This document shows positions 4,402-5,974 of a stretch of 64,000 bases of DNA, piece after piece. The translations under genes were made by a program, and so were the position numbers. The notes beneath the pieces were generated by a model. That model was not told where the DNA came from and searched no databases. It saw only the letters and a program-made list of their open reading frames with translations. Source of the DNA: Thermococcus sp. SY098. Its GTDB lineage: Archaea; Methanobacteriota_B; Thermococci; Thermococcales; Thermococcaceae. Location: the NCBI RefSeq assembly GCF_035621495.1, contig NZ_CP141821.1, forward strand, positions 1,268,760 to 1,332,759, read 5' to 3'. Positions within the stretch are counted from its first letter, which is position 1; each line of letters opens with the position of its first letter.

Positions 4402-4508
4402 TCAAAGAACCGCCATGATAGAAAGTCCGACCACAATCATGATAATTACCATTAGAATTATTGCTATCACTATTGCAAAGAGCCATGCTATCACTGCTTT
4501 GCCGTTCT
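4402..4508 (-). pseudogene. 3' part of a small membrane-protein gene split by the TnpB element
   Basis: Just beyond the right end of the tnpB element the minus strand continues as an open frame, NGKAVIAWLFAIVIAI followed by ILMVIIMIVVGLSIMAVL, and then a stop at 4402-4404. This is one strongly hydrophobic helix with no start codon or ribosome site of its own. The matching 5' part (ribosome site, ATG and 16 codons) lies on the other side of the element at about 5928-5974. Joined, the two would give a protein of about 52 residues with a short polar N terminus and one membrane helix. The family is not recognised. Confidence 0.6.
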
Positions 4509-4556
4509 GGTTAGCCGTAACTTTTGTAAAGTTCGTAAATGTCGTTACGGCTAACC
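4509..4556 (-). repeat. Right-end hairpin of the TnpB element, overlapping the tnpB stop
   Basis: GGTTAGCCGTAAC (4509-4521) and its exact reverse complement GTTACGGCTAACC (4544-4556) form a 13-bp perfect stem around a 22-base loop. The hairpin contains the last codons and the stop of tnpB. In characterised TnpB systems the right end supplies the scaffold of the guide (omega/re) RNA, and the guide begins directly after it. By that analogy the guide here would be host DNA just below 4509, read on the minus strand. Confidence 0.75.
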
Positions 4557-5692
4557 TTCCCCACTCCCGTCTTCATTGGAGGGCTTTCGGGAGGAACGGG
4601 AACTCCCCACATCTTCAAGGCTCTCAAGCGAATGTTCCAAGAGCCGACAACATCACGGTCGGCCTCAAAACCACAGTTTGAACACTTCAAAACCCTGTGC
4701 TCATTCGGGCTTAATTTCTCCCCACATATCGGGCACAGGGAGGAAGTAAAAGCCGGATTAACGAAAACAACCCTAACGCCCTTTAATTTCGCCTTGTATT
4801 CGATAATTGACTGGAGTTTCCTAAAACTCCAGCGGTGCAAACGACCATTCATCTCGGCGGAATATCTAATCGAATCCCTAATTTCCGTCAAATCTTCCAG
4901 AGCAAGACCACCGTATTTCTTTGCTAACTCCACGATGTTATTCGCAAGTTTATGATAAAGGTCGTTCAACCTGTTCTTCTCCCTCTCCCCGTACTTCTCA
5001 AGGAGTTCCTTCCTCTTCCTTCCAGCCCTGATTTTCTGCTGTATCATTCTCCTCTTCACGAAGTAACCAGTCCTAATCTCCCGCTCGTGAGTAATGATTT
5101 GGACAAACTCGCCGTTTGGGAGTGAAATTGTTACGTTATTCTCGTTCAAATCCACTCCAACGAAAGTAAATGACCCTCTTATTTCAACCTCCTTGGAGAA
5201 TACTACGTTAATGAATACCCCTTTTGGCGTTCTAACTAACCAAGCTTGTCCGACCTTCCAATTTCTAAACTTCTCGTGATACTTTGCAGGATAAAACTTC
5301 AACTGAATTCTCCCGTTGGGAGTGGAAACCTTCACTACTCCCTCCTCAAGGTCAAGTTTGAAGAGATGGTCATCCAACATTACGACATCCTTCTTGAAAA
5401 CAGGCTTCCCATTAGCTTTCCCTTTCCTTTTCCTCTTCCTGTAGCTCTTGTAAATTGCGACAGCCATTTGACAAGCCGTGTAAAGATAATGACTTGGTAA
5501 TTGCGGGTATTTCTCCCTTAACTCTTTGTAAGTTCCCTTCTTCAGGCGATAAAAGCTTGTTACATTGTTTTCAAAAGCGTGAGTGATGAGAAAGTTCACA
5601 ATTTCCCGATAAGTGAGGAAGAGGTAATCTAATCCTTTGGGTGTTTCCTTGAGTTTAAATTTTGCCGTGAGTTTAATTGTTTCACTCGGCAT
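4511..5692 (-). CDS. tnpB: TnpB RNA-guided endonuclease
   Basis: This 393-residue TnpB appears full-length and intact. RuvC-like motifs are present in order: Asp181 in FVGVDLNENNV, Glu266 in GGLALEDLTEI, and Asp345/Asp347 in FEADRDVVGSWN. A four-cysteine zinc finger (Cys320, Cys323, Cys337, Cys340; SLCPICGEK and LKCSNCGFE) precedes the last acid. The N-terminal ~150 residues are the basic wedge/REC-like part with a KSYRKRKRKGK stretch. The start ATG lies inside the stop region of the upstream ribbon-helix-helix gene, so the two are translationally coupled. Known TnpBs are RNA-guided nucleases that help keep the element at its site. Activity here is inferred from the conserved residues. Confidence 0.95.
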   Translation of the reverse strand: MPSETIKLTAKFKLKETPKGLDYLFLTYREIVNFLITHAFENNVTSFYRLKKGTYKELREKYPQLPSHYLYTACQMAVAIYKSYRKRKRKGKANGKPVFKKDVVMLDDHLFKLDLEEGVVKVSTPNGRIQLKFYPAKYHEKFRNWKVGQAWLVRTPKGVFINVVFSKEVEIRGSFTFVGVDLNENNVTISLPNGEFVQIITHEREIRTGYFVKRRMIQQKIRAGRKRKELLEKYGEREKNRLNDLYHKLANNIVELAKKYGGLALEDLTEIRDSIRYSAEMNGRLHRWSFRKLQSIIEYKAKLKGVRVVFVNPAFTSSLCPICGEKLSPNEHRVLKCSNCGFEADRDVVGSWNIRLRALKMWGVPVPPESPPMKTGVGKVSRNDIYELYKSYG

Positions 5693-5846
5693 TTTCCAGC
5701 TCCTTTTTTGTTTTCTTAATCCAATCTTTCATTGCCTCTTCAATTGCAACACTTAGAACTCCCCTCTTATTCCCATAACGTTTTTTGGCGAGTTTTTTGA
5801 ACTCTTCAAGAGTTTCCTCACTAATGACGAAAGTCGCCTTAGGCAT
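5682..5846 (-). CDS. Small ribbon-helix-helix-like protein overlapping tnpB
   Basis: This 54-residue ORF starts MPKATFVISEETLEEFKKLA and ends KKTKKELENAE. A short beta strand (ATFVIS) followed by two helices (residues ~9-23 and ~29-48) matches the CopG/Arc-type ribbon-helix-helix pattern. A GGTGG ribosome site precedes the ATG, and the last 11 bases overlap the tnpB start, so the two form one transcription unit. It could be an autorepressor limiting tnpB expression, or an antitoxin-like passenger. The coding potential is clear from codon pattern and ribosome site. The fold is inferred from sequence pattern. Confidence 0.75.
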   Translation of the reverse strand: MPKATFVISEETLEEFKKLAKKRYGNKRGVLSVAIEEAMKDWIKKTKKELENAE

Positions 5847-5927
5847 TACAAACCACCATCAAAGAAATACTAAGTTGAGTATTTAAACCTTGTGCTAACA
5901 AAAACCAACAAAAGTTACGAAAGTTAC

Positions 5928-5974
5928 CATTTATGAAACAGCCCGAACACAGCCATTGGCCCAACTGGCGCCAT
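5928..5974 (-). pseudogene. 5' part of the small membrane-protein gene split by the TnpB element
   Basis: A GGTGA ribosome site at 5981-5985 with six-base spacing precedes ATG at 5972-5974, encoding MAPVGPMAVFGLFHKW. The frame then meets a stop at the element boundary. A TATA-like A/T-rich stretch lies upstream at about 6010-6020. The 3' part resumes in a compatible frame at 4508. Joining after TGGT or TGGTA gives Trp-Tyr-Gln-Asn-Gly at the junction. The gene is probably inactivated unless the short peptide has its own role. Confidence 0.6.

What the first reader, a model, noticed from the sequence alone, without database searches (positions are those of the whole stretch)
4402..5974. TnpB element splits a small membrane-protein gene
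The two halves of one small gene sit on either side of a TnpB-only element. A ribosome site, ATG and 16 codons lie at 5974-5928; the compatible frame resumes at 4508 with a membrane helix and a stop at 4402. The empty site can be reconstructed to within a few bases, which is rare information about where such elements insert and shows the insertion may be recent.
Basis: partly seen in the sequence, partly recalled or inferred. Interest (0 to 1): 0.7.

Follow-up and report, generated by a model that had tools for sequence, protein, structure and literature searches.

The report
Transposon replaces middle of membrane gene
In a heat-loving archaeon, a mobile element carrying an RNA-guided nuclease but no transposase has replaced the middle 241 bases of a small membrane-protein gene, exactly between the gene's only two GGGG sites, so the gene is broken and the original site cannot be rebuilt just by joining the two halves.

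Summary
The two gene halves are real, but the reading needs correction. Sister species carry the gene intact. It encodes a 124-residue, hydrophobic protein, not a 52-residue one. The window keeps only codons 1-10 and the last 33; 241 bp between them are gone, so the empty site cannot be rebuilt by joining flanks. The insert (5942-4504, 1439 bp) is IS607-derived: tnpB plus a small ribbon-helix-helix-like (RHH) gene in the slot where sister elements carry the serine transposase tnpA. Both forms share identical ends (GG|GCTGTTT...CAGAAC|GG). For 18 other copies I found empty sites: all were clean insertions, 15 with exactly four bases (GGGG or one mismatch), the rest 3-5. The window copy is the only one with a deletion, and both its junctions are the only two GGGG sites of the intact gene. 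That points to element-linked recombination between GGGG sites rather than random decay; which of three routes produced it is not decided. RHH and tnpA act as interchangeable front modules: their distribution on the tnpB tree is no better than random, and linkage ends about 20 nt into tnpB. New variant of a known kind; interest 0.5.

The parts
5945..5974 (-). 5' remnant of the interrupted membrane-protein gene (ATG ... TTC, codons 1-10, MAPVGPMAVF); Shine-Dalgarno-like GGTGA at 5985-5981
   Evidence: alignment to intact alleles L004/L005 ends at TTC-GGG
5943..5944 (-). left GG of the split GG^GG target, from the first GGGG site of the intact gene
   Evidence: empty-site rule from 18 other copies; L005 reads TTC GGGG CTC here
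4504..5942 (-). IS607-derived element, 1439 bp, GCTGTTTCATAAATGG ... GGCTAACCAGAAC
   Evidence: same ends in ~27 copies with unrelated flanks in 94 Thermococcaceae genomes
5682..5846 (-). 54-codon ribbon-helix-helix-like ORF in the position where sister elements carry tnpA; overlaps the tnpB start
   Evidence: sub-threshold Pfam matches, all to RHH families among the recurrent hits; close copies (at least 85% identity) in 12 other genomes; two-helix AlphaFold model, pLDDT 92
4511..5692 (-). tnpB, 393 codons, intact; RNA-guided endonuclease TnpB family
   Evidence: NCBIfam guided_TnpB 171.8 bits against cut-off 100; Cas12f1-like_TNB above cut-off; PDB TnpB/Cas12f relatives
4502..4671 (-). predicted 3' part of the omega/re-RNA scaffold; terminal 13-bp hairpin 4556-4544 with 4521-4509, closing stem 4599-4594 with 4507-4502 (GAACGG, includes both flanking G)
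   Evidence: 8 of 13 hairpin pairs show two-sided changes over 28 copies, 95.9% of cells paired against 13-42% when slid
4502..4503 (-). right GG of the split GG^GG target, from the second GGGG site of the intact gene
   Evidence: L004/L005 read GACT GGGG CAAAGC here
4482..4501 (-). predicted 20-nt guide, CAAAGCAGTGATAGCATGGC; identical sequence follows GGGG in the intact alleles of G087 and G092
4402..4503 (-). 3' remnant of the interrupted gene (last 33 codons GKAVIAWLF...SIMAVL and TGA)
   Evidence: BLASTN/tblastn to intact alleles

Best explanation
A transposase-less relative of an IS607-family element (RHH gene + tnpB + omega RNA) inserted into a GG^GG site of a single-copy membrane-protein gene, presumably moved in trans by an IS607 TnpA that reads the same ends. 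The window allele joins the left junction expected at the gene's first GGGG to the right junction expected at its second GGGG, and the 241 bp between them are gone. I think it most likely that the element first sat at one GGGG and one of its ends then recombined with the other GGGG (serine-recombinase exchange at GG, or an equivalent element-linked event), deleting the DNA between. The gene is dead. The nuclease and RNA look intact, and their guide now matches the intact allele at its second GGGG, so cleavage and repair could copy the element together with the deletion. Shown: anatomy, ends, target rule, deletion and its GGGG endpoints, absence of TnpA today. Inferred: trans-mobilisation, order of events, nuclease activity, homing.
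For: Both forms share LE GGGCTGTTT and RE CAGAACGG. Their TnpA is IS607 by NCBIfam (243 bits, cut-off 110). 18 copies have clean empty sites: 15 have exactly 4 bases (GGGG or one mismatch) between the flanks, the others 3-5. The window has 245 (L004, L005, L006, L008). The intact gene of L005 has exactly two GGGG on the coding strand, at positions 30 and 271, and none on the other; these are the two junctions, so a random flank deletion would end there with p about 0.003-0.01 (own estimate). Published IS607 insertions use (G)GG with no duplication and exchange at GG (PMC6188088), and an IS607 TnpB uses a GGG TAM with the flanking G in its scaffold (PMC10711439). Own genome has no IS607 TnpA and no second copy of the gene. 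Guide 20/20 identical to the intact allele.
Against: None of the 18 other resolved copies shows a flank deletion, so this outcome is rare (1 of 19). No paper in the library describes IS607 adjacent deletions. The two GGGG sites also form 5-bp direct repeats (GGGGC), so an earlier spontaneous deletion is possible. No other isolate of this species is held, so intermediates cannot be seen.
Confidence: 0.6

Rival explanations
1. Deletion first: slippage or recombination between the 5-bp GGGGC repeats removed 241 bp (a frameshift that already killed the gene), leaving one GGGG, and the element then inserted cleanly into that GGGG.
For: GGGGC occurs at both sites in L005; the product TTC-GGGG-CAAAGC plus a clean insertion gives exactly the window sequence.
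Against: The insertion must fall by coincidence on the scar of an unrelated deletion, although GGGG is common (about 5.6 per kb over both strands of the window). L004, L006 and L008 read GGAG at the left site, so the 5-bp repeat may not have existed in the ancestor.
Confidence: 0.2
2. Two insertions of the element in the same orientation, one at each GGGG (in one chromosome or in two recombining ones), followed by homologous recombination between the 1.44-kb copies, which leaves one copy and loses the DNA between.
For: Predicts one intact element, left flank of one target and right flank of the other, as seen; classical behaviour of insertion sequences; other genomes carry ten or more matches to this TnpB.
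Against: Needs two independent insertions 241 bp apart; the window genome now holds a single copy of this lineage.
Confidence: 0.15
3. Ordinary decay: a clean insertion followed by a random flanking deletion.
For: Deletions next to insertion sequences are common in general (general knowledge).
Against: The deletion stops exactly at an intact element end and at the only other GGGG of the gene; a random endpoint would do so with p about 0.003-0.01.
Confidence: 0.05

Closest known systems
IS607 family (TnpA serine recombinase + TnpB), e.g. IS607, IS1535, ISC1904
   Same: Ends, GG-type target without target duplication, and tnpB are shared with sister elements whose tnpA scores as an IS607 transposase (PMC6188088).
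   Different: The window copy has no tnpA; an RHH-like gene sits in its place. The target looks like four G rather than (G)GG. Its TnpB does not reach the curated IS607_TnpB model (40 against 350 bits).
ISXfa1 IS607 TnpB with reRNA (PMC10711439)
   Same: A predicted stem takes the flanking G into the RNA scaffold; G-rich motif next to the guide target.
   Different: Archaeal, and activity not tested; the closing stem is invariant, so covariation neither supports nor opposes it.
TnpB elements without tnpA in haloarchaea (35 of 38 tnpB in Natronomonas, most in Haloquadratum; PMC3119063)
   Same: tnpB without a linked tnpA.
   Different: Those are IS605/IS1341 type; here the ends are IS607 type and the tnpA slot is filled by an RHH-like gene.
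Pyrococcus abyssi ncRNAs sRk48/sRk52 (PMC3124441)
   Same: Expressed small RNAs similar to the 3' ends of partial OrfB-like IS607 genes of P. furiosus and T. sibiricus, as expected for omega RNAs of such elements.
   Different: Not compared base by base here.

Membership tests
IS607 insertion-sequence family | encodes an IS607-type serine transposase (TnpA) in the element | tested here: not met
   no TnpA in the element nor anywhere in the own genome at E<=1e-5; so it is a derivative, not an autonomous member
IS607 insertion-sequence family | ends shared with TnpA-bearing IS607 elements | tested here: met
   GGGCTGTTT / CAGAACGG in both forms; the TnpA scores 243 bits on NF033518 transpos_IS607
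IS607 insertion-sequence family | insertion at GG without target duplication | tested here: met
   18 copies of the lineage: flanks separated by 3-5 nt, 15 of them exactly 4, GGGG or one mismatch; for the window copy both junctions fit but host DNA is lost between them
TnpB RNA-guided endonucleases | RuvC/zinc-ribbon TnpB protein above curated cut-offs | tested here: met
   NF040570 171.8 against 100; PF07282 81.4 against 26.3
TnpB RNA-guided endonucleases | 3'-end omega/reRNA with conserved structure | tested here: met
   8 of 13 hairpin pairs with two-sided change, no shuffle as high in covariation score; related copies may inflate the shuffle test, slid controls do not pair
TnpB RNA-guided endonucleases | RNA-guided cleavage at TAM plus guide | not testable with these tools
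   needs biochemistry
IS200/IS605 family | Y1 TnpA, and a variable base to the right of the right end | tested here: not met
   sister elements carry a serine recombinase, and the right-flanking bases are fixed GG (criterion from PMC10711439)
Ribbon-helix-helix (CopG/Arc) proteins, for the 54-codon ORF | curated family match or solved-structure match | tested here: inconclusive
   RHH_6 E 0.0028, below cut-off; RHH models hit 7, 5 and 4 of 12 relatives; phrog Arc-like repressor E 0.0023; PDB sequence and fold searches gave nothing significant

The most novel reading that the evidence does not exclude
The lineage is a modular system in which a regulatory RHH gene and the transposase tnpA are interchangeable front modules on a shared TnpB/omega-RNA chassis, and transposase-less copies spread by RNA-guided cleavage plus repair (homing), carrying adjacent GGGG-to-GGGG deletions that reprogram the guide or enlarge the converted tract.
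Probability: 0.15. Interest if true: 0.75.

Novelty: new variant of a known kind. Interest (0 to 1): 0.5.

Why it matters
It fixes, from 18 empty sites, the exact ends and GG^GG target of an archaeal IS607/TnpB lineage, so its target motif and guide can be predicted and tested. It shows a natural GGGG-to-GGGG deletion abutting an intact IS607-type element, a product not found described in the papers searched. It also shows that transposase and RHH gene swap freely in front of tnpB. How transposase-less TnpB elements persist and spread is an open question; this lineage offers matched pairs with and without tnpA that share their ends.

Tried and rejected
Rfam scan of the element: only two sub-threshold chance hits. 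RHH identity by PDB sequence profile and by Foldseek: nothing significant, the 54-residue monomer is too small. Pfam and NCBIfam for the 124-aa membrane protein: no family. Naming the organism through genome contigs: the window's own record was not returned; it is only known to lie in a Thermococcaceae-type genome of 2.03 Mb. A microhomology join at GGGCT was considered for the left junction, but with the L005 allele that would leave four G where the window has three. Flanks of L037, L039, L051, L056 and L058 found no usable full empty site, and L041 was not measured, so they are not counted. Literature: no paper in the library holds TnpB, ribbon-helix-helix and IS607 together; three hold the first two and were not read; none holds 'IS607' with 'adjacent deletion'. 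Subscription papers are not covered.

Full report
What is there. On the minus strand a Shine-Dalgarno-like GGTGA, an ATG at 5974 and 16 codons lie upstream of a 54-codon ORF (5846-5682) that overlaps the start of a 393-codon tnpB (5692-4511). After the tnpB stop a hydrophobic frame runs to a stop at 4402. The window lies in a 2.03-Mb one-contig genome whose relatives, by the record titles of the closest named hits, are Thermococcus.

The host gene. A search of the 94 genomes of the family with the joined 52-residue peptide found intact genes with longer open frames. Read out, sister species G087 (L005) and G092 (L004) encode a 124-residue, strongly hydrophobic protein MAPVGPMAVFGALGAMAVVMFLV...FNTDWGKAVIAWLF...MAVL between the same neighbouring DNA. 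BLASTN of the window flanks onto L005 matches up to TTCGGG and resumes at GGCAAAGC, with 240 bases of L005 absent in that numbering. Measured with the empty-site rule below, the loss is 241 bp. No second copy of the gene exists in the own genome, so it is probably null here. It has no Pfam or NCBIfam family.

Element ends. A family-wide search found related TnpB genes in 57 of 94 genomes. Aligning 29 loci shows two forms with the same ends: ~1.85-kb elements with a serine-recombinase TnpA plus TnpB, and ~1.44-kb elements with a small RHH-like ORF plus TnpB. Nearly all begin GGG-CTGTT (one GGGATGTT) and end CAGAAC-GG, where the flanks diverge. The TnpA is IS607 by NCBIfam (243 bits, cut-off 110) and has Pfam Resolvase plus HTH_17 domains. 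The window copy is of the RHH form.

Target rule. I joined the flanks of 24 copies in three long queries and searched the family, then measured the bases between the flanks in the matching empty sites. For 18 copies (5 RHH form, 13 TnpA form) the site is clean: 15 have exactly four bases, mostly GGGG with single mismatches in some relatives, and the remaining three have 3 or 5. So the element GCTG...AAC goes into the middle of GG^GG without host loss. This agrees with published IS607 insertions at (G)GG without duplication (PMC6188088). In the window the same measurement gives 245 bases in L004, L005, L006 and L008. It is the only measured copy with a deletion.

The deletion. The intact L005 gene has exactly two GGGG on its coding strand, at positions 30 and 271 (0-based), and none on the other strand. 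The window's left junction is what an insertion at the first would give, and its right junction what an insertion at the second would give. A random deletion endpoint would meet the only other GGGG (or one of four other GGRG) in about 370 positions with p about 0.003 to 0.01. This is my own estimate, made after the fact. Three routes give the same sequence: an element end recombining with the second GGGG; two insertions followed by recombination between copies; or an earlier deletion between the GGGGC repeats followed by a clean insertion. I favour the first because it needs neither two insertions nor a coincidence, but nothing here separates them decisively.

RNA and guide. Over 28 copies the last 170 bases form a terminal 13-bp hairpin in which 8 pairs change on both sides; 95.9% of cells pair, against at most 42% when slid. 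RNAalifold also pairs the terminal GAACGG, including both flanking G, with an upstream CCGUUC. That echoes the finding that the flanking G belongs to the scaffold of an IS607 TnpB with a GGG TAM (PMC10711439); being nearly invariant, this stem carries no covariation evidence. The predicted guide CAAAGCAGTGATAGCATGGC is 20/20 identical after GGGG in the intact alleles of G087 and G092. If the nuclease is active it should cut the intact allele there, and repair from an element-bearing chromosome would carry the deletion along. That is inference.

No transposase at home. The own genome has no IS607 TnpA at E<=1e-5, and neither do G034, G014 and G021, which also hold one close RHH copy each. The four genomes with several RHH copies (G043, G015, G077, G078) all have a close TnpA, against 4 of 10 with one copy. 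The direction fits trans-mobilisation but is not significant (one-sided p about 0.07, my calculation).

Front-module exchange. On a maximum-likelihood tree of 30 TnpB proteins the RHH and TnpA labels need 8 changes, as many as shuffled labels (mean 8.0), and well-supported branches alone force 4. The RHH front (left end to tnpB start) is 88-95% identical among seven copies whose tnpB genes are 78-87% identical. Association of tnpB sequence with the front module is strong only in its first 20 bases. The two fronts therefore seem to swap by recombination near the tnpB start. A related RHH gene also precedes a second, distant TnpB lineage in many of these genomes, including the own genome, so an RHH gene is a recurrent partner of tnpB here. 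Its role is not shown; an autorepressor or end-binding protein is the simplest guess.

Recency. The event post-dates the split from sister species 96-99% identical at the locus, and tnpB, the RHH gene and both ends are intact. The nearest tnpB copies found are only 86% identical in protein, so the donor is not among the genomes searched.

Limits. One genome per species is held, so no intermediate can be seen, and reads are not available to exclude an assembly error. RHH identity rests on sub-threshold but consistent matches and a two-helix model. Nuclease activity and mobility are untested.

Noticed in passing
L002:1408-2855 (own genome, G000:C1 about 1153.4-1154.9 kb): A second RHH-like ORF overlaps a 431-codon TnpB of a distant lineage (29% identity to the window TnpB). 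The same pairing recurs in at least eight other thermococcal loci (L107, L109-L111, L113, L117, L119, L120).
   Followed up: partly
tnpB front ends, e.g. window:5692-5670 against L036: The RHH and tnpA front modules look freely exchanged between tnpB backbones, with linkage ending about 20 nt into tnpB.
   Followed up: yes
L156, L157, L164: TnpA-form elements with the same right end (L156 also the left end) occur in contigs labelled Thermoproteota and Desulfurococcales, and a remnant in Methanothermococcus: transfer between archaeal phyla or binning contamination.
   Followed up: no
Alignment A1, columns 119-166 (window 4556-4509): Different sequence classes of the terminal hairpin are shared across RHH and TnpA elements, so the RNA end may be exchanged as a further module.
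   Followed up: no
L048 flanks (G038): Around this copy, about ten relatives hold extra DNA (for example 0.7 kb in G040) between the flanks, starting about 15 nt from the insertion site, while G016, G023 and G029 do not: a variable region next to the target.
   Followed up: no
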